A DNA stretch of 64,000 nucleotides, taken from the NCBI RefSeq assembly GCF_900476395.1, contig NZ_UIHB01000002.1, positions 713,126 to 777,125 on the forward strand. The letters run 5' to 3'. Position 1 is the first letter of the stretch. Every line of letters starts with the position of its first letter. Position numbers and translations under genes: made by a program. The stretch is from Xanthomonas euroxanthea (GTDB lineage: Bacteria > Pseudomonadota > Gammaproteobacteria > Xanthomonadales > Xanthomonadaceae). This document shows positions 8,577 to 17,280 of this stretch, one piece after another. The notes beneath the pieces were generated by a model. It did not search any database, was not told the DNA's origin, and was given only the letters and a program-made list of their open reading frames with translations.

Positions 8577-8626
8577 GCTGCGCAGCGGTTGCGCCGTACC
8601 CGCATGCATGCGAGGATTCGCGCCCT

Positions 8627-8728
8627 ATGCACGCAAACGCCTTTCAGCACGACACCAGCGCCGCCCGGATGGCCTCCGGCATGACCTCGCGTGCCCGCCG
8701 ACCGGAATCCCACATTTTCGCTGGGTAA
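8627..8728 (+). CDS. Predicted arginine leader peptide (33 codons)
   Basis: Short ORF with ATG at 8627, GAGGA (8612-8616) ten bases upstream, and stop TAA at 8726-8728. It contains four Arg codons, three of them clustered as CGT-GCC-CGC-CGA at 8690-8701. Its last codons and stop contain GCTGGGT (8720-8726), identical to the 3' arm of the terminator at 8756-8783 and able to pair with its 5' arm. This is the arrangement of a ribosome-dependent attenuator ahead of the arginine genes. Coding is inferred from layout only. Confidence 0.45.
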   Translation: MHANAFQHDTSAARMASGMTSRARRPESHIFAG

Positions 8729-8755
8729 CCGGAGCGTTTGGCTGTTCCGCTGTTG

Positions 8756-8783
8756 AAAACCCAGCCCTGAGGCTGGGTTTTTT
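8756..8783 (+). terminator. Terminator in the argF' leader, candidate attenuator
   Basis: Stem AAAACCCAGCC (8756-8766) and GGCTGGGTTTT (8771-8781), loop CTGA, followed by T residues. It lies 28 bases after the leader ORF stop and 105 bases before argF'. GCTGGGT at 8720-8726 can pair with ACCCAGC at 8759-8765 and so prevent the stem, giving a switch. It could instead be a plain terminator for the gene ending at 8576. Confidence 0.8.
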
Positions 8784-8888
8784 CGTTTTGACGTCACAAA
8801 AGTTTCAACCGCAAGAAACGCGCATGTCGCGCACCCCGTCGCTCCTGGCGGACCACGCAGCAGAAGCACGCAGCACAAGGACCGATCG

Positions 8889-9908
8889 ATGTCACTGAAG
8901 CACTTCTTGAACACCCAGGACTGGAGCCGCGCCGAACTGGACGCGCTGTTGACCCAGGCTGCGTTGTTCAAACGCAACAAGCTGGGAAGCGAGCTGAAGG
9001 GCAAGTCGATCGCGCTGGTGTTCTTCAACCCGTCCATGCGCACGCGGACCAGCTTCGAGCTGGGCGCGTTCCAGCTGGGCGGGCATGCAGTGGTGCTGCA
9101 GCCGGGCAAGGATGCCTGGCCGATCGAGTTCAATCTGGGCACGGTGATGGATGGCGACACCGAGGAGCACATCGCCGAAGTGGCGCGCGTGCTGGGCCGC
9201 TATGTCGACCTGATCGGCGTGCGCGCGTTCCCGAAGTTCGTCGACTGGTCCAAGGACCGCGAGGACCAGGTGCTCAGGAGCTTCGCCAAGTACTCGCCGG
9301 TGCCGGTGATCAACATGGAGACGATCACCCACCCGTGCCAGGAGCTGGCGCACGCGCTGGCCTTGCAGGAACACTTCGGCACCCAGGATCTGCGCGGCAA
9401 GAAGTACGTGCTGACCTGGACCTATCACCCCAAGCCGTTGAACACCGCAGTGGCCAATTCCGCACTGACCATCGCCACCCGCATGGGCATGGACGTGACC
9501 CTGCTGTGCCCGACGCCGGACTACATCCTGGACGAGCGCTACATGGACTGGGCAGCGCAGAACGTTGCCGAAAGCGGCGGCTCGCTACAGGTCAGCCACG
9601 ACATCGACAGCGCCTATGCCGGTGCCGACGTGGTGTATGCCAAGAGCTGGGGCGCACTGCCGTTCTTCGGCAACTGGGAGCCGGAAAAGCCGATCCGCGA
9701 CCGGTACCAGCACTTCATCGTCGACGAACGCAAGATGGCGCTGACCAACAACGGCGTGTTCTCGCACTGCCTGCCGCTGCGTCGCAACGTCAAGGCCACC
9801 GACGCGGTGATGGATTCGCCCAACTGTATCGCCATCGACGAGGCCGAGAACCGCCTGCATGTGCAGAAGGCGATCATGGCAGCGCTGGTCGGCCAAGGCC
9901 GGGCATGA
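8889..9908 (+). CDS. argF': N-acetylornithine carbamoyltransferase
   Basis: 339 residues. The carbamoyl-phosphate site is intact (NPSMRTRTSFE near residue 50), with HPCQELAH and the C-terminal HCLPLRR. The overall sequence, including TWTYHPKPLNTAV, matches the acetylornithine (not ornithine) transcarbamylase of Xanthomonas. The product is N-acetyl-L-citrulline, which the deacetylase encoded at 11801 turns into citrulline. First structural gene of the arginine block; it overlaps the OsmC gene by four bases (ATGA). The attenuator-like leader upstream suggests control by arginine supply. Confidence 0.93.
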   Translation: MSLKHFLNTQDWSRAELDALLTQAALFKRNKLGSELKGKSIALVFFNPSMRTRTSFELGAFQLGGHAVVLQPGKDAWPIEFNLGTVMDGDTEEHIAEVARVLGRYVDLIGVRAFPKFVDWSKDREDQVLRSFAKYSPVPVINMETITHPCQELAHALALQEHFGTQDLRGKKYVLTWTYHPKPLNTAVANSALTIATRMGMDVTLLCPTPDYILDERYMDWAAQNVAESGGSLQVSHDIDSAYAGADVVYAKSWGALPFFGNWEPEKPIRDRYQHFIVDERKMALTNNGVFSHCLPLRRNVKATDAVMDSPNCIAIDEAENRLHVQKAIMAALVGQGRA

Positions 9909-10375
9909 GCGGCCACACCCATCACTACACCGCGCAGGTCACCTGGACCGGCGATCGCGGCGAGGGCACTGGGAGCTACCGCGGCTATGGCCGCGAGCAC
10001 GAGATCGCCATCGCCGGCAAGCCGACGCTGGCCGGTTCGGCCGACTCGGCGTTCCGCGGCGACGCCTCGCGGCACAACCCCGAGGATCTGCTCGTGGCCT
10101 CGCTGTCGGCCTGCCACATGCTCTGGTACCTGCATCTGGCCGCCGAGTCCGGCGTGGTGGTGCGCGGCTACGTCGACGAGGCCGGCGGCACGATGCTGAC
10201 CGACGCCGGCGGCGGCCAGTTCCGCGAGGTGGTGCTGCATCCGGTCGTCACGATTTCCGCCGGTGATCCGGCGGCCGCGCAGGCGCTGCACCATGCCGCG
10301 CACGCGGCCTGTTTCATCGCCCGTTCGGTCAACTTCCCGGTGCGCTGCGAGCCGCGCGTCGTGGTTGTCGAGTAG
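9905..10375 (+). CDS. OsmC/Ohr family protein
   Basis: 156 residues. The two family cysteines are present: Cys70 in [18 protein letters not shown] and Cys136 in HAACFIARS. OsmC/Ohr proteins reduce organic hydroperoxides with lipoyl partners in the cytoplasm. The ATG overlaps the argF' stop by four bases, so it is translated with the arginine genes; no reason for that link is evident. argG follows 35 bases later. Confidence 0.88.
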
Positions 10376-10410
10376 GTTCCCTTTTCTACCTTCCCCCCAG
10401 GATCTTCGTC

Positions 10411-11604
10411 ATGAGCAGCAAAGATATCGTTCTCGCCTTCTCCGGCGGCCTCGACACCAGCTTCTGCATTCCGTATCTGCAGGCGCAGGGCTATGCGGTG
10501 CACACCGTGTTCGCCGATACCGGCGGCGTGGATGCGGAGGAACGCGACTTCATCGAGAAGCGCGCCGCCGAGCTGGGCGCGGCCAGCCATGTCACCGTCG
10601 ATGGCGGTCCGGCCATCTGGCAGGGCTTCGTCAAGCCGTTCGTGTGGGCCGGCGAGGGCTACCAGGGCCAGTACCCGTTGCTGGTGTCCGACCGTTACCT
10701 GATCGTCGATGCCGCGCTCAAGCGCGCCGGGGAACTGGGCACGCGCAGCATCGCCCACGGCTGCACCGGCATGGGCAACGACCAGGTGCGCTTCGATCTG
10801 GCGGTCAAGGCGCTGGGCGACTACCAGATCGTGGCGCCGATCCGCGAGATCCAGAAGGAGCACACCCAGACCCGCGCCTACGAGCAGAAGTATCTGGAAG
10901 AGCGCGGCTTCGGCGTGCGCGCCAAGCAGCAGGCCTACACCATCAACGAGAACCTGCTCGGGCTGACCATGTCCGGCGGCGAGATCGACCGTTGGGAAGC
11001 GCCGGGTGAAGGTGCGCGTGGCTGGTGCGCGCCGCGCAGCGAGTGGCCGGCCGAAGCGCTGACCGTCACCCTGACGTTCGTCGAAGGCGAGGCTGTTGAA
11101 CTCAACGGCAAGGCGCTACCGGGCGAGCAGATCCTGGCCAAGCTCAACAGGCTGTTTGCGCCCTACGGCGTGGGCCGCGGCGTGTATACCGGCGACACCG
11201 TGATCGGTTTGAAGGGCCGCATCGTCTTCGAAGCGCCCGGCCTGATTTCGCTGCTGACCGCGCACCGCGCGCTGGAAGATGCGGTGCTGACCAAGCAGCA
11301 GAACCGCTTCAAGCCGGATGTGGCGCGCAAGTGGGTGGAGCTGGTGTACGAAGGCTTCTATCACGATCCGCTCAAGACCGACATCGAGGCGTTTTTGAAG
11401 TCGTCGCAGTCCAAGGTCAACGGCGAGGTCACGCTGGAAACCCGCGGTGGCCGCGTCGATGCGGTGGCGGTGCGTTCGCCGCATCTGCTCAACACCAAGG
11501 GCGCGACCTACGCGCAGTCGGCCGACTGGGGCGTGGAAGAGGCGGAAGGCTTCATCAAGCTGTTCGGGATGAGCTCGACGCTGTACGCCCAGGTGAATCG
11601 CTGA
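10411..11604 (+). CDS. argG: Argininosuccinate synthase
   Basis: 397 residues, the usual length. The ATP pyrophosphatase motif AFSGGLDTS is near residue 10, followed by [10 protein letters not shown] and [14 protein letters not shown]. It condenses citrulline with aspartate using ATP to give argininosuccinate. It sits between the OsmC gene and the acetylcitrulline deacetylase gene, from which it is separated by a 196-base spacer with repeat palindromes. Confidence 0.95.
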
Positions 11605-11800
11605 GGCGACCGCTCCGCAGGCAGCCGGCATCTTGCTTCTCCCGCGTGCGGGAGAAGCTGGCGCATCGCGCCGGATGAGGGCGACCTGCCGCATGCCCCC
11701 ATCCGCCCTGTCGGGCACCTTCCCCCGCAGGCGGGGGAAGGGCCAGAGGGGCGTTAGAAAGACCGACTACCCTCTGGCCGACGCAATCAAGACGCGATCA
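11605..11800. repeat. Intergenic palindromic repeat between argG and argE'
   Basis: Holds two hairpins: GCTTCTCCCGCGTGCGGGAGAAGC near 11635-11660 and a block near 11700-11745 with CATCCGCCCTGTCGGGCACC followed by CTTCCCCCGCAGGCGGGGGAAGG. The second block is a variant of the one at about 6430-6470. No gene is seen. It may act as mRNA-stabilising or processing structure inside the arginine cluster. Confidence 0.6.
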
Positions 11801-12901
11801 ATGACCACACTGCTCGACAACACACTGCCGCATCTGCAAAAGCTGGTGTCCTTCGACACCCGCAATCCGCCGCGGGCGATCGCTGCCGAGGGCGGCATCT
11901 TCGATTATCTGCGCGCGCAGCTGCCCGGGTTCCAGGTCGAGGTGATCGACCACGGTGCCGGTGCGGTAAGCCTGTATGCGGTGCGCGGTGCGCCCAAGTA
12001 CCTGTTCAACGTGCATCTGGATACGGTGCCGGATTCGCCGCACTGGAGTGCCGATCCGCACGTGATGCGGCGTACCGACGATCGCGTGATCGGTCTGGGC
12101 GTCTGCGACATCAAGGGGGCGGCAGCGGCGCTGGTGGCGGCGGCCAATGCCGGGCAGGGCGATGCGGCATTCCTGTTTTCTTCCGACGAGGAAGCCAACG
12201 ACCCGCGCTGCATCGCCGCGTTCCTGGCGCGCGGCGTGCCGTATGAGGCGGTGCTGGTCGCCGAGCCGACCATGAGCGAGGCGGTGCTGGCGCATCGCGG
12301 AATCAGCTCGGTGCTGATGCGCTTTGCCGGGCGTGCCGGGCATGCGTCGGGCAAGCAGGATCCATCCGCCAGTGCGCTGCACCAGGCGATGCGCTGGGGC
12401 GGCAGGGCACTGGAGCATGTGGAGTCGCTGGCGCATGCGCGCTTCGGCGGCCTGACCGGCCTGCGTTTCAACATCGGCCGCGTCGAGGGTGGCATCAAGG
12501 CCAACATGATCGCGCCGGCGGCCGAGCTGCGTTTCGGCTTTCGTCCGCTGCCGTCGATGGACGTGGATGGCTTGCTGGCCACGTTTGCCGGCTTCGCCGA
12601 TCCTGCGGCAGCGCAGTTCGAAGAAACCTTTCGCGGGCCGAGCCTGCCGTCGGGTGACATCGCGCGTGCCGAGGAACGCCGCCTGGCCGCACGCGATGTC
12701 GCCGATGCGCTGGACCTGCCGATCGGCAATGCAGTGGATTTCTGGACCGAGGCCTCGCTGTTCTCGGCCGGTGGCTATACCGCACTGGTGTACGGACCGG
12801 GCGACATCGCCCAGGCGCACACCGCCGACGAGTTCGTGATGCTTGCGCAGTTGCAGCGTTACGCCGAGTCGGTCCATCGCATCATCAACGGCTGCAACTG
12901 A
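11801..12901 (+). CDS. argE': N-acetyl-L-citrulline deacetylase, M20 family
   Basis: 366 residues from the ATG at 11801, the start that fits the family N-terminus. Metal ligands are visible in FNVHLDTVPD (H72, D74), GVCDIKGA and SSDEEAND. Xanthomonas uses this ArgE-like enzyme to deacetylate acetylcitrulline, matching the acetylornithine carbamoyltransferase upstream. Generic annotation as acetylornithine deacetylase would be misleading here. The argAB gene follows 48 bases later. Confidence 0.9.
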   Translation: MTTLLDNTLPHLQKLVSFDTRNPPRAIAAEGGIFDYLRAQLPGFQVEVIDHGAGAVSLYAVRGAPKYLFNVHLDTVPDSPHWSADPHVMRRTDDRVIGLGVCDIKGAAAALVAAANAGQGDAAFLFSSDEEANDPRCIAAFLARGVPYEAVLVAEPTMSEAVLAHRGISSVLMRFAGRAGHASGKQDPSASALHQAMRWGGRALEHVESLAHARFGGLTGLRFNIGRVEGGIKANMIAPAAELRFGFRPLPSMDVDGLLATFAGFADPAAAQFEETFRGPSLPSGDIARAEERRLAARDVADALDLPIGNAVDFWTEASLFSAGGYTALVYGPGDIAQAHTADEFVMLAQLQRYAESVHRIINGCN

Positions 12902-12949
12902 AGCCGCGTTCCGCGCCTGGCGCGGCCATTCCTCTCTTCGATCACGGCA

Positions 12950-14293
12950 ATGTCCCTCTCCGCACAGCCCCACAAACAGACCCGTCAGACCATCGTGCGC
13001 CTGCTTTCGAGCATGGCCAGCGCCAAGGAAATCAGCCAGTACCTCAAGCGTTTCTCGCAGCTGGATGCCAAACGCTTTGCGGTGGTCAAGGTGGGCGGCG
13101 CGGTGCTGCGCGACGACCTGGACGCGCTGACCTCGTCGCTGTCGTTCCTGCAGGAAGTGGGCCTGACCCCGATCGTGCTGCATGGCGCCGGCCCGCAGCT
13201 GGATGCGGAGCTGTCTGCAGCGGGCATCGAAAAACAGACCGTCAACGGCTTGCGGGTGACCTCGCCCGAAGCCCTGGCGATCGTGCGCAAGGTGTTCCAG
13301 GCCTCCAACCTCAAGCTGGTGGAAGCGCTGCAGCAGAATGGCGCGCGTGCGACCTCGATCACCGGCGGCGTGTTCGAAGCGCAGTATCTGGATCGCGACA
13401 CCTATGGCCTGGTCGGCGAGGTCAAGGCGGTGAACCTGGCGCCGATCGAAGCCAGCCTGCAGGCCGGCTCGATTCCGGTGATCACCAGCCTGGGCGAGAC
13501 GCCGAGCGGGCAGATCCTCAACGTCAACGCGGATTTTGCCGCCAATGAGCTGGTGCAGGAGCTGCAGCCGTACAAGATCATCTTCCTCACCGGCACCGGC
13601 GGTCTGCTGGATGCCGATGGCAAGGTCATCGACTCGATCAACCTGTCCACCGAGTTCGACCATCTGATGCAGCAGCCGTGGATCAACGGCGGCATGCGGG
13701 TGAAGATCGAACAGATCAAGGACCTGCTCGATCGCCTGCCGCTGGAGTCGTCGGTGTCGATCACCCGGCCGGCCGATCTGGCCAAGGAACTGTTCACCCA
13801 CAAGGGCTCGGGCACGCTGGTGCGGCGCGGCGAGCGCGTGCTGCGTGCGACCTCCTGGGACGAACTGGACCTGCCGCGGCTCAGGACCCTGATCGAATCC
13901 AGCTTCGGCCGCACGCTGGTGCCCGATTACTTCAGCAACACCAAGTTGCTGCGCGCCTATGTCAGCGAGAACTACCGCGCCGCGGTGATCCTCACCGACG
14001 AAGGCATGCTGGGTGCAAGCGCGCTGATCTACCTGGACAAGTTCGCCGTGCTCGACGACGCCCAGGGCGAAGGCCTGGGCCGTGCAGTGTGGAACGTGAT
14101 GCGCGAGGAAACCCCGCAACTGTTCTGGCGCTCGCGTCACAACAACCAGGTCAACATTTTCTATTACGCCGAGTCCGACGGCTGCATCAAGCAGGAGAAG
14201 TGGAAGGTGTTCTGGTACGGGCTGGAGAACTTCGAGCAGATCCAGCACTGCGTGGCGCATTGCGCGACGCGTCAGCCGACGCTGCTGGGCTGA
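12950..14293 (+). CDS. argB: Bifunctional N-acetylglutamate synthase/kinase
   Basis: 447 residues, much longer than a stand-alone kinase (about 300). Residues ~60-290 are an amino acid kinase domain ([40 protein letters not shown]). Residues ~300-447 are a GNAT acetyltransferase domain of the vertebrate-like NAGS type ([28 protein letters not shown]). The enzyme makes N-acetylglutamate and phosphorylates it, the first two steps of arginine synthesis. It may be feedback-inhibited by arginine, as known for NAGS/K of Xanthomonas. The gene fills both argA and argB roles. Confidence 0.93.
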
Positions 14294-14298
14294 GTACG

Positions 14299-14910
14299 AT
14301 GGCGCCCGTCGCATTGCCAGCGCTTTGGCGCGAGCTGCCCACGTTGCGCGGGCAACACGCAACACTGGAACCATTGCAGGCTGCGCATGCCGATGGTCTG
14401 CGCGCTGCGCTGGGCGACGGGGCCTTGTCGCGGCTGTGGTACACCGGCGTGCCGGCACCGGCGCAGGTGGACGACTACGTGGGCGCGGCCTTGGATGCGC
14501 AAGCCGACGGGCGGGTGCTGCCTTACGTGGTGCGCGATGCGGCCGGCGAGGTCGTCGGCTGCACACGCTATTACGGGCTGGATGCGACAGTGCCCAAGCT
14601 GTCGATCGGCTACACCTGGTACGCGCCGCGCGTGCAGCGCAGCGGCGTCAATACCGACACCAAGCGGATGCTGCTGCAGCACGCCTTCGAGACGCTGGGC
14701 TGCCTGAGCGTGGTGTTCGAGACCAGCTGGTTCAATCACACCTCGCGCGCGGCGATTGCGCGGCTTGGTGCAAAGCAGGACGGCGTGCTGCGCAATTACA
14801 CCCGTCACCCTGACGGCACGCCGCGCGACACCGTGGTGTTCTCCATCATCGATACGGAATGGGCCGGGGTCAAACGCCACCTGCAGTTTCGCCTGGAAGC
14901 AAACGCATGA
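14299..14910 (+). CDS. GNAT family N-acetyltransferase
   Basis: 203 residues, RimJ/RimL-like GNAT fold: [16 protein letters not shown] at the start, then [40 protein letters not shown] and an [12 protein letters not shown] helix with acetyl-CoA binding character. The acceptor is unknown; proteins, amino acids or antibiotics are all possible. It starts five bases after argAB and overlaps argC by four bases, so it is firmly inside the arginine operon. Confidence 0.85.
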
Positions 14911-15857
14911 CTGTTCAAACAACGACCATTGGCATCGTCGGGGCCCGCGGGCATACCGGATCGGAATTGATCAAGCTGGTGGTGGCACACCCGCATCTGC
15001 AGCTGCTGTTCGTGTCCTCGCGCGAGCTGGCCGGGCAACCGGTGGCCGAGCACAACGCGGCGTATCGCGGTGAGCTGCGCTACGAGAGCCTGGATGCCGA
15101 TGCGGTGGCCGCCAAGGCCGCCGACGTGGTGATCCTGGCATTGCCCAACGGCAAGGCCGAGCCCTTCGTCGCGGCGATCGATGCGGTCAGGCCGCAGACG
15201 CTGCTGATCGATCTGTCGGCCGATTACCGCTTCGATCCGGCCTGGTATTACGGGTTGCCGGAGCTGACGCGCGGCAGCTACGCCGGGCAGCGACGCATCA
15301 GCAATCCGGGCTGCTATGCCACCGCGATGCAGCTGACGATCGCGCCCTTGCTCGACCAACTGGCCGGCCCGCCACAGTGTTTCGGCGTGTCCGGGTATTC
15401 CGGCGCGGGTACCACGCCGTCGGACAAGAACAACCCCGAGTTGCTGGCCGATAACCTGATGCCGTATGCGCTGACCAACCACATGCACGAGCGCGAAGTC
15501 TCTGCGCAGCTCGGGGTGCCGGTGGAGTTCATGCCGCATGTGGCGCCGCATTTCCGCGGCATCACCATGACCGTCAACCTGTGGCTGCAGCAGCCGCTGA
15601 CACGCGAGCAGATCCAGGCGCGCTACACGCAGCGTTACGCCGACGAGCCGTTGATCGAGATCGTCGATGAAGCGCCGTGGGTCAGCCGCATCGCCGGCAG
15701 GCATGGCGTGCAGATCGGCGGCGTGACGCTGGCGCCGGGCAACAAGCGCGTGGTGGTTGTGGCAACGCTGGACAACCTGCTCAAGGGCGCGGCGACGCAG
15801 GCGATGCAGAATCTCAATCTGGCGTTGGGCTGGGACGAATTGACTGCGATTGGCTGA
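14907..15857 (+). CDS. argC: N-acetyl-gamma-glutamyl-phosphate reductase
   Basis: 316 residues, short form. The NADP-binding start is [14 protein letters not shown]; the catalytic cysteine is Cys136 in [10 protein letters not shown]; a conserved HMHERE motif follows. It reduces acetylglutamyl phosphate to the semialdehyde. The start at 14907 overlaps the GNAT stop (ATGA). argD, the next enzyme, is not in the window. Confidence 0.94.
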
Positions 15858-15861
15858 TGAT

Positions 15862-15954
15862 GCGAGTCCCTCGCAAGAGCCCGCACATCCTTGTGCGGGG
15901 ATTCAAAGGTGCGAGTCCCTCGCAGAAGCCCGCACCTCCATGTGCGGGGATTTA
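15862..15954. repeat. Tandem duplicated hairpin repeat before argH
   Basis: Two copies of a 49-base unit start at 15862 and 15911. Each begins GCGAGTCCCTCGCA and contains CCCGCACxTCCxTGTGCGGGG, a hairpin. The copies differ at a few positions. They fill the argC-argH spacer and might act as partial terminators, processing sites or RNA stability elements. No T-run follows, so full termination is unlikely. Confidence 0.85.
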
Positions 15955-15984
15955 ACTGGACGACTTATTTCGAGACGCTTTCCG

Positions 15985-17280
15985 ATGACCAATCTGTTGT
16001 GGCAAAAACCCGGCGTGGCGGTGGACGCCAAGATCCAGAGCTTCCTGGCCGGCGACGACGTCATCCTGGACCGCGAGTTCTTCCTGTACGACATCGCTGC
16101 CAGCAAGGCGCATGCGCAGGGACTGCAGCACATCGGCATCCTGTCGCTGCAGGAGCTGGGCGGACTGAGCGAACAGCTTGACCTGCTGGCGGCCGATTTC
16201 CGCAGTGGCACGTTCGTGCTGGACGAGCGCTACGAGGACTGCCATTCGGCGATCGAGGCGCGCCTGACCGAACGGCTGGGCGATGCCGGCCGCAAGATCC
16301 ACACCGGGCGCAGCCGTAACGACCAGATCCTGGTCGCTACCCGCCTGTGGTTGAAGGACAAGCTGCAACGCGTGGCCGAGCTCGGCGCGGAGATCGCCAA
16401 GGTGGCGCTGGACCGCGCGCAGGCAGAAGCCGCGTTGCCAGTGCCGGGCTATACGCATATCCAGCGTGCGGTGGTGTCCTCGGCCGGCATGTGGTGGGCG
16501 GGCTGGGCAGAGGCCTTTATCGACGACGCGGTGCGTGCGGCCGATACCTTGCGCCTGGTGGACAGCAATCCGCTCGGTACTGCGGCCGGCTATGGTGTCA
16601 ACCTGCCGCTGGACCGTGCGCATACCACCGCCGAGCTGGGCTTTGCACGGCTGCAGGTCTCGCCGATCTATGCGCAGCTCTCGCGTGGCAAGTACGAACT
16701 GGCCGCGCTTGAGGCGCTTGGCAGCGCAACGCTGGACCTGCGCCGGATTGCCTGGGACCTGTCGTTGTTCACCAGCGGCGAGTTCGCCTTCGTCGCGCTG
16801 CCGGCGCAGTACACCACCGGCAGCTCGATCATGCCGAACAAGCGCAACCCCGACGTGATCGAGCTGATGCGCGCCACCCACGCCAGCGTGGCCGCCGCGC
16901 GCACCGAGATCGAACAGCTGCTGTCGCTGCCATCGGGCTATCACCGCGACCTGCAGAGCAGCAAGGGGGCGATCGTGCATGGCTTCGGGCGCGGCCTGGC
17001 GGCGCTGGAACTGCTGCCGGCCCTGCTGGCCAACCTGGAATGGCGCCCGGACAAGCTGCGTGCGGCGATCGATTCGGGCATGTACGCCACCGATGTGGCG
17101 GTGGAAGCAGCCGTTGCCGGCGTGCCGTTCCGCGAGGCCTACAAGGCCGCGGCGGAATCGGCCGACACCGCCGGGCAGGGCCGCACGCCGGAAGGCAGCC
17201 TGGCCGCGCGCGTCTCGCCAGGCGCCGCCGCGGACCTGCAGCTGGACGTGCTGCGTGCCCGCTGGGAGGCGCTGGTCTGA
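15985..17280 (+). CDS. argH: Argininosuccinate lyase
   Basis: 431 residues from the ATG at 15985. Fumarase/aspartase superfamily signature [13 protein letters not shown] is present, with HTGRSRNDQ and YTHIQRAV. It splits argininosuccinate into arginine and fumarate, ending the pathway. The stop TGA overlaps the start of the cupin gene (TGATG). Confidence 0.95.

What the first reader, a model, noticed from the sequence alone, without database searches (positions are those of the whole stretch)
8612..8783. Candidate ribosome-dependent attenuator ahead of the acetylated arginine operon
Seen: a 33-codon ORF (8627-8728) with a plausible ribosome site, three Arg codons within four codons at 8690-8701, and GCTGGGT at its stop codon (8720-8726). 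That segment is identical to the 3' arm of the terminator at 8756-8783 and can pair with the terminator's 5' arm (7 bp, ACCCAGC at 8759-8765). This is the trp/his-type logic: stalling at Arg codons frees GCTGGGT to pair and open the terminator, while completing translation hides it and lets the terminator form. Known: ribosome-mediated attenuation is classic for trp, his and leu operons and rarely described for arginine. Inference: argF' onward is attenuated by charged tRNA-Arg.
Basis: partly seen in the sequence, partly recalled or inferred. Interest (0 to 1): 0.75.

Follow-up and report, generated by a model that had tools for sequence, protein, structure and literature searches.

The report
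Arginine-sensing attenuator before argF'
Just before the arginine-making genes lies a tiny gene for a 33-residue peptide whose arginine codons probably let the bacterium read on into those genes only when arginine runs short; it is conserved in most relatives examined, although part of it is filed as a non-coding small RNA.

Summary
The reading holds, with one correction. ORF 8627-8728, Arg codons 8690-8701, GCTGGGT 8720-8726 and terminator 8756-8781 are real. The supposed ribosome site (GAGGA, 8612) lies upstream of the mapped 5' end of the homologous Xanthomonas oryzae RNA (Rfam Xoo5, window 8625-8748) and is better read as the -10 box, so the leader ORF is almost leaderless. Of 90 loci chosen by argF' protein alone, 89 carry the leader core (ARMA[A/S]GMTSRARRP) and the terminator. 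The core is under purifying selection in this frame (pN/pS 0.19) while its flanks drift (1.05, 0.94). The stop-codon copy pairs 7 of 7 with the terminator's 5' arm in 110 of 120 genomes, with matched A-U/G-C changes in all three segments. The regulatory Arg codons are CGY, CGY, CGA (CGG in 3 of 291). In more distant families the peptide differs but an Arg cluster remains (29 of 33 loci). ArgR was not found in this genome. I judge it a ribosome-mediated arginine attenuator, new for an arginine biosynthesis operon as far as my searches reached; nothing was tested at the bench. Unexplained: the conservation of non-Arg core residues, and the short measured length of Xoo5.

The parts
8589..8594 (+). 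-35 box TTGCGC
   Evidence: TTG-n16..18-xAxxxT found in 84 of 85 f1 loci, spacer 17 in 81 of 84; 2% of shuffles have such a site
   Evidence: ends 8 nt before the 5' end placed at 8625 by homology; gap from -10 to start codon 6-10 nt in 80 of 85 f1 loci, 0.2% of shuffles
8625..8748 (+). Rfam RF02242 Xoo5 RNA; first base = transcription start by homology
   Evidence: 144.2 bits; 5' RACE and Northern in X. oryzae (PMC3039613)
8627..8728 (+). leader ORF, 33 codons, MHANAFQHDTSAARMASGMTSRARRPESHIFAG
   Evidence: sequence; in-frame purifying selection on its core
8663..8704 (+). conserved peptide core ARMASGMTSRARRP (codons 13-26)
   Evidence: pN/pS 0.19 over 97 distinct segments, flanks 1.05 and 0.94
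8690..8701 (+). regulatory Arg codons CGT (8690), CGC (8696), CGA (8699)
   Evidence: Arg in 97 of 97 at each of the three sites
8720..8726 (+). antiterminator 5' segment GCTGGGT, overlapping the stop codon
   Evidence: 7 of 7 pairs with the terminator 5' arm in 110 of 120 genomes
8756..8781 (+). intrinsic terminator; 5' arm ACCCAGC 8759-8765 can also pair with 8720-8726; 3' arm GCTGGGT 8772-8778
   Evidence: arms 7 of 7 paired and at least 4 T in the next 8 nt in 120 of 120; covariation on alignment A1
8889..9908 (+). argF' (N-acetylornithine carbamoyltransferase), first regulated gene
   Evidence: Pfam OTCace_N and OTCace; the gene downstream of Xoo5 in X. oryzae, PXO_00353, is named N-acetylornithine carbamoyltransferase
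9905..17280 (+). rest of the likely operon: OsmC-like, argG, M20 peptidase (argE-type), kinase-NAT fusion (argB/argA-type), GNAT, argC-type, argH-type lyase
   Evidence: Pfam, gene names inferred from the domains; co-transcription inferred from spacing and strand only

Best explanation
A ribosome-mediated transcription attenuator that senses arginine supply through charged tRNA-Arg. Transcription starts about 2 nt before the leader ATG. A ribosome translates the leader behind RNA polymerase. When arginine is plentiful it runs to the stop codon, covers GCTGGGT (8720-8726), and the terminator 8756-8781 forms, giving a short RNA. When charged tRNA-Arg(ACG) is scarce it stalls at CGT GCC CGC CGA, 18 nt short of GCTGGGT, which then pairs with ACCCAGC (8759-8765) and keeps the terminator from forming, so argF' and the genes behind it are transcribed. 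Shown by sequence: conserved ORF and frame, Arg codons, two alternative pairings. Shown in a relative (X. oryzae): the 5' end and a short RNA. Inferred: stalling, antitermination in vivo, arginine as the signal, co-transcription of the operon.
For: Leader core plus terminator in 120 of 121 near genomes; 89 of 90 among loci fetched by argF' match alone. All 36 loci fetched by the Xoo5 family have argF' behind them. In-frame selection: core pN/pS 0.19, three Arg codons pN 0, flanks 1.05 and 0.94, shifted frames 1.77 and 4.06. Antiterminator 7 of 7 in 110 of 120 (13 of the 110 use a G-U pair), at least 6 in 118 of 120; offset 18 nt in 103 of these 118. Terminator covariation: cells changed on both sides 36 against 13.4 +/- 2.6 in shuffles. 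CGG at the three Arg sites in 3 of 291 against 37 of 85 at the less constrained Arg site -11; tRNA-Arg ACG genes present; this fits selective-charging theory (PMC1183508, passages). Ensemble folding with an assumed footprint: antiterminator favoured with a ribosome on the last Arg codon in 116 of 120, terminator with a ribosome at the stop codon in 120 of 120. Far families: 29 of 33 loci have a terminator and a leader ORF with at least 3 Arg in 6 codons. ArgR not found in G000 nor in 112 of the 120 other order genomes searched.
Against: No bench test. The mapped X. oryzae RNA is 124 nt (bands about 130 and 100), shorter than the roughly 160 nt predicted for termination near 8785; trimming must be assumed. 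The X. oryzae Xoo5 deletion had no growth phenotype in rich or minimal medium. With the complete terminator present, equilibrium favours it even in the stalled state in 110 of 120, so antitermination would have to be kinetic. Without a ribosome the antiterminator still forms in 51 of 120, so a protecting 1:2 hairpin is not general. Non-Arg core residues are strongly conserved (pN/pS 0.14), which tRNA sensing alone does not need. For the far families, a reverse-strand control for Arg clusters was as positive (26 of 29) as the forward count (23 of 29), so those clusters alone are weak evidence. L120 and 3 of 5 f9 loci lack the system.
Confidence: 0.8

Rival explanations
1. Nascent-chain arrest: the core MA[A/S]GMTSRARRP stalls the ribosome at the Arg-Arg-Pro step, alone or with a small pathway molecule (arginine, ornithine or N-acetylornithine) in the exit tunnel; stalling opens the terminator as above. 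It may act together with tRNA sensing, so it does not exclude the best explanation.
For: Non-Arg core residues under strong selection (pN/pS 0.14), placed where the tunnel would hold them (inference); Pro follows in 91 of 97. Same direction of control. Recalled precedent: SpeFL arrest by ornithine.
Against: Distant families keep an Arg cluster but not the peptide sequence. Codon-level bias towards one tRNA box. No Pfam or NCBIfam match up to E 10 for three leaders.
Confidence: 0.25
2. Untranslated or trans-acting sRNA (the Rfam view): Xoo5 is a stable small RNA acting on other targets, the ORF being incidental.
For: Northern bands of about 130 and 100 nt that change with growth phase in X. oryzae (PMC3039613).
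Against: Selection acts in one reading frame; argF' lies behind all 36 Xoo5-chosen loci; the deletion showed no growth phenotype. A trans role of the released RNA or peptide, as for rnTrpL/peTrpL (PMC7298713, passages), could exist in addition.
Confidence: 0.07
3. The CGA and TCG codons and the G ending codon -10 are kept by small RNA hairpins (UCGCG/CGxCGA and GCC/GGC), for example an RNA polymerase pause hairpin, and not by tRNA sensing. This concerns codon choice only and can coexist with attenuation.
For: Paired third positions are nearly fixed (G 96 of 97 at -4, A 93 of 97 at 0, G 96 of 97 at -10 although the residue changes) while the unpaired ones at -3, -2 and -1 vary; 3 of 4 exceptions to CGA are CGG, which keeps a G-U pair.
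Against: The hairpin is weak (0 to -3.1 kcal/mol in the 12 commonest forms listed, and its predicted shape differs among them) and shows no pair changed on both sides. It does not explain the Arg residues.
Confidence: 0.2
4. Ordinary constitutive terminator of the upstream gene, with no control.
For: A terminator stands between two genes on the same strand.
Against: Own conserved promoter, leader ORF and antiterminator copy.
Confidence: 0.02

Closest known systems
trp/his/leu-type ribosome-mediated transcription attenuators
   Same: Short leader ORF with codons for the pathway's end product, intrinsic terminator, competing antiterminator near the ORF end
   Different: Amino acid is arginine; start almost leaderless in f1; stop codon itself inside the antiterminator; a protecting 1:2 hairpin is not general; long peptide core conserved
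Rfam RF02242 Xoo5 (Xanthomonadaceae sRNA)
   Same: Same RNA: 144.2 bits, whole model matched
   Different: Filed as an sRNA gene ending before the terminator; here read as a translated leader that includes the terminator
orf34/speF leader of Salmonella (PMC6386406, abstract and passages)
   Same: Consecutive Arg codons in a leader ORF sense arginine; pausing there under low arginine favours the downstream gene
   Different: Polyamine gene; works through Rho and RNase G, not an intrinsic terminator; no Pfam match (PF10940 included) for our leaders
rnTrpL/peTrpL of Sinorhizobium (PMC7298713, passages)
   Same: Leaderless attenuator ORF, small RNA released by attenuation
   Different: Tryptophan; trans roles reported there, not tested here

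Membership tests
Ribosome-mediated transcription attenuator | Translated short ORF in the transcript before the first gene | tested here: met
   In-frame selection, RACE 5' end before the ATG in a relative; translation itself was not measured
Ribosome-mediated transcription attenuator | Intrinsic terminator between ORF and gene | tested here: met
   Arms 7 of 7 paired and at least 4 T in the next 8 nt in 120 of 120 leader-bearing genomes; in the window
Ribosome-mediated transcription attenuator | Mutually exclusive antiterminator, conserved | tested here: met
   7 of 7 pairs in 110 of 120, 13 of these with a G-U pair
Ribosome-mediated transcription attenuator | Cluster of codons for the end product at the right distance | tested here: met
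   Arg at three sites in 97 of 97; offset 18 nt in 103 of 118
Ribosome-mediated transcription attenuator | 1:2 hairpin that protects termination without a ribosome | tested here: inconclusive
   Antiterminator probability without a ribosome above 0.5 in 51 of 120, not above in 69; in the window 0.20
Ribosome-mediated transcription attenuator | Read-through rises when the amino acid is limiting | not testable with these tools
   Needs reporters
RF02242 Xoo5 | Match above gathering score | tested here: met
   144.2 against 50 bits
RF02242 Xoo5 | Non-coding RNA | tested here: not met
   In-frame selection on the ORF core
Arrest peptide (SpeFL, TnaC type) | Peptide residues conserved beyond the sensed codons | tested here: met
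   Non-Arg core pN/pS 0.14
Arrest peptide (SpeFL, TnaC type) | Ligand-dependent stall | not testable with these tools
   Needs toeprinting
SpeFL (PF10940) | Pfam match | tested here: not met
   No Pfam family up to E 10 for three leaders
Riboswitch or T-box | Match to an Rfam riboswitch or T-box | tested here: not met
   Only Xoo5 passes its gathering score in this region

The most novel reading that the evidence does not exclude
The leader peptide is a dual sensor: besides reading tRNA-Arg charging, its 14-residue core is a nascent-chain arrest sequence that responds to an arginine-pathway metabolite such as N-acetylornithine, the substrate of argF', so that the operon opens on either product shortage or substrate build-up.
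Probability: 0.18. Interest if true: 0.85.

Novelty: new member of a known kind. Interest (0 to 1): 0.64.

Why it matters
It would supply an arginine control for an order in which ArgR was found in only 8 of 121 genomes searched, all of one family. It turns an Rfam sRNA into a translated leader, adds arginine biosynthesis to the operons run by ribosome-mediated attenuation, and offers a natural test of selective tRNA charging theory, because codon use at the three key sites is almost confined to one tRNA box. The conserved peptide core makes an open question testable: can an attenuator peptide also be an arrest peptide?

Tried and rejected
The Rfam view (non-coding sRNA) as the main reading: rejected because selection follows one frame. 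Model R1 outside the order: best matches outside family f1 were 37.7 bits in the class sample and 38.7 bits in the phylum sample, against a gap from 63.4 to 41.1 bits inside the order. I treat matches of about 41 bits and less as terminator-like noise, so the E <= 0.001 tallies of those calls (184 of 250, 39 of 274, 34 of 150) overstate. Some weak order matches (for example in G137, G191, G085, G182, G060) lie just before argF' and proved to be diverged leaders by reading them. Arg-cluster counts in far families: forward 23 of 29, reverse strand 26 of 29, mononucleotide shuffles 18%; I therefore rest on ORF anatomy, where the ORF was chosen for Arg content, which is a bias. A second copy of the core in the genome: 1 match only, the leader itself. 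Family f11, which has ArgR: argF 38-43% identical; in the 300 bases upstream no SRARR in the one frame translated, 0 of 8, and at most 4-5 Arg in 8 codons, not above the shuffle background by much; the other frames were not checked for SRARR and terminators were not sought there. Papers: searches gave no arginine-biosynthesis leader-peptide attenuator among the listings and passages seen; a carA motif in beta-proteobacteria is described in PMC8632094 (passage) as an extended hairpin; most subscription papers are not held.

Full report
What is there. The window region reads: TTGCGC (8589-8594), 17 nt, GAGGAT (8612-8617), 9 nt, ATG at 8627, a 33-codon ORF ending TAA at 8728, a 27-nt linker, a terminator at 8756-8781 with T's behind it, and argF' at 8889. 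The Xoo5 paper (PMC3039613; abstract, passages, sections 7 and 17 seen) reports a 124-nt RNA with a 5' end by RACE (the farthest of six to ten clones) and Northern bands of about 130 and 100 nt, both in early growth and only the short one later. The model is 124 positions long and is matched from position 1, so the 5' end falls at 8625 by homology. The 5' UTR is then 2 nt long, which removes the proposed Shine-Dalgarno sequence.

Conservation. argF' was sought in 250 genomes of the order; 217 matched at E <= 1e-60. I fetched upstream DNA for 90 of these 217 by argF' match (L031-L120, mostly the best matches) and for 36 genomes by the Xoo5 family (L001-L030, L121-L126). Five genomes are in both sets, leaving 121. 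The leader core and the terminator are present in 120; the exception is L120. Among the 90 loci chosen by argF' 89 have it. The 36 Xoo5-chosen loci have it by construction, but all 36 also prove to have argF' behind it. Six more f2/f3 loci fetched later all show the core.

Selection. 97 distinct leader segments were compared codon by codon. Codons -12 to +1 around the last Arg have pN/pS 0.193; codons -22 to -15 have 1.047 and +2 to +6 have 0.942; the core read in shifted frames gives 1.77 and 4.06. The three Arg codons show no amino acid change. The core thus evolves as a translated peptide in this frame. The closing Ala-Gly-stop seems to follow from the RNA copy GCYGGGTAR and not from the peptide: where the stop comes earlier (L047, L055, L056, L068, L070) the RNA copy stays in place.

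RNA alternatives. The leader copy pairs with the terminator's 5' arm at 7 of 7 positions in 110 of 120 genomes (G-U allowed; 13 use one) and at 6 or more in 118; shuffled regions reach 7 in 1.2% and 6 or more in 23%. Matched types are ACCCAGC/GCTGGGT/GCTGGGT (69) and ACCCGGC/GCCGGGT/GCCGGGT (28), so one pair changes from A-U to G-C in all three segments; L112, in family f12 where G-C prevails, has the A-U type in all three. Of the 10 genomes with fewer than 7 pairs, L075 breaks the match at that pair (leader C against A). The distance from the last Arg codon to the copy is 18 nt in 103 of the 118. Folding with an assumed ribosome footprint of 13 nt from the start of the A-site codon favours the antiterminator in 116 of 120 with the ribosome at the last Arg codon, and the terminator in 120 of 120 with it at the stop codon; without a ribosome the antiterminator is favoured in 51 of 120; with the complete terminator present, the stalled state still favours the terminator at equilibrium in 110 of 120. 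The antiterminator would have to win by forming first, as is held for known attenuators (recalled).

Codons and tRNA. At the three key sites the codons are CGT 68/CGC 29, CGC 76/CGT 21 and CGA 93/CGG 3/CGT 1 of 97; at the less constrained Arg -11, CGG makes up 37 of 85. Seven window genes hold 175 Arg codons: CGC 120, CGT 25, CGG 22, AGG 7, CGA 1. Among 22 of the 30 tRNA loci fetched (54 tRNA matches in all), tRNA-Arg genes ACG (two), CCG (one) and TCT (two) were seen. That the ACG tRNA reads CGU, CGC and CGA is recalled; these are 146 of the 175 Arg codons. By selective charging theory (PMC1183508, passages) heavy use can make such a tRNA lose charge first; tRNA amounts were not measured. CGA is read slowly in a his-leader assay in Salmonella (PMC4046918, passages). 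A rival for the CGA itself is a small RNA hairpin UCGCG/CGxCGA in which the nearly fixed third positions pair.

Distant families. Upstream DNA of 33 further loci from families f6-f9 was read. 29 have a terminator and an ORF before it with at least 3 Arg within 6 codons (143 Arg of 700 residues; 131 of 143 in the CGU/CGC/CGA set); peptides differ (for example MFTDNTQPTSSFIRRLRRPGFYQVGWVAI). Three f9 loci have no such terminator, one contig was truncated. The ORF was picked for Arg content, and the reverse-strand control was also positive, so this is supporting evidence only. Model R1 gives matches of 63 bits or more only in families f1, f2, f3 and f12.

Promoter. TTG-n16..18-xAxxxT precedes the start in 84 of 85 f1 loci (2% of shuffles), with 6-10 nt from -10 to the start codon in 80 (0.2% of shuffles); in f12 29 of 30 have it, 24 of these 23-27 nt from the start; in f2/f3 2 of 5. 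The near-leaderless start is thus usual in f1 and not in f12, if the start codons are right. The only measured 5' end is the X. oryzae one.

Other regulators. No ArgR N-terminal domain was found in G000 and no ArgR C-terminal domain in 113 of 121 order genomes, G000 among them; the 8 with it are all of family f11, whose argF is 38-43% identical to ours.

Downstream genes by Pfam: carbamoyltransferase, OsmC-like, argininosuccinate synthase, M20 peptidase, amino acid kinase-NAT fusion, GNAT, semialdehyde dehydrogenase, lyase, consistent with the acetylated arginine pathway.

Judgement. The sequence-level features of a ribosome-mediated attenuator that I tested were met, except that a general 1:2 hairpin is inconclusive; the physiological response was not testable. 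It works like trp/his attenuation: likely. Member of that kind: met as far as sequence can show. What remains odd is the constraint on non-Arg residues of the core, and the short measured size of Xoo5. The closest arginine-sensing leader in print that I saw is orf34 of speF (PMC6386406, abstract and passages), which acts through Rho and RNase G on a polyamine gene. PMC2965389 holds the words arginine and argF 0 times in its main text. PMC8632094 (passages) describes a carA motif and a cysS leader peptide, no argF one.

Noticed in passing
window 8663-8704 and homologous codons: Codon -10 of the core ends in G in 96 of 97 segments although the residue changes (Met, Gln, Ala, Leu), and Ala -12 is GCC in 93 of 97: an RNA-level constraint of unknown role.
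   Followed up: partly
window 9905-10375 and 14296-14910: An OsmC-like gene and a GNAT acetyltransferase gene sit inside the arginine gene cluster.
   Followed up: no
PMC3039613, section on sRNA-Xoo1: A table in that section lists N-acetylornithine carbamoyltransferase (PXO_00353) and argininosuccinate synthase (PXO_00352) among proteins whose amount changed when another X. oryzae RNA, sRNA-Xoo1, was deleted (passage): the genes behind this leader.
   Followed up: no
L169 (JAHREJ010000037.1): A record titled Bacillus subtilis SK7B5 encodes an argF' 92% identical to the Xanthomonas one: probably a contaminated or mislabelled assembly.
   Followed up: no
L242, L243, L264 (family f9, genus g11): No leader terminator was found before argF' in these three. 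None of the 8 ArgR hits is in f9, but whether these genomes were in that sample is not shown: their arginine control is unknown.
   Followed up: no
L247, L248 (family f3): Leaders with the core ...GMTSRARRRSD* whose ORF stops three codons after SRARR; terminator arms GCCCGGC/GCCGGGC.
   Followed up: no
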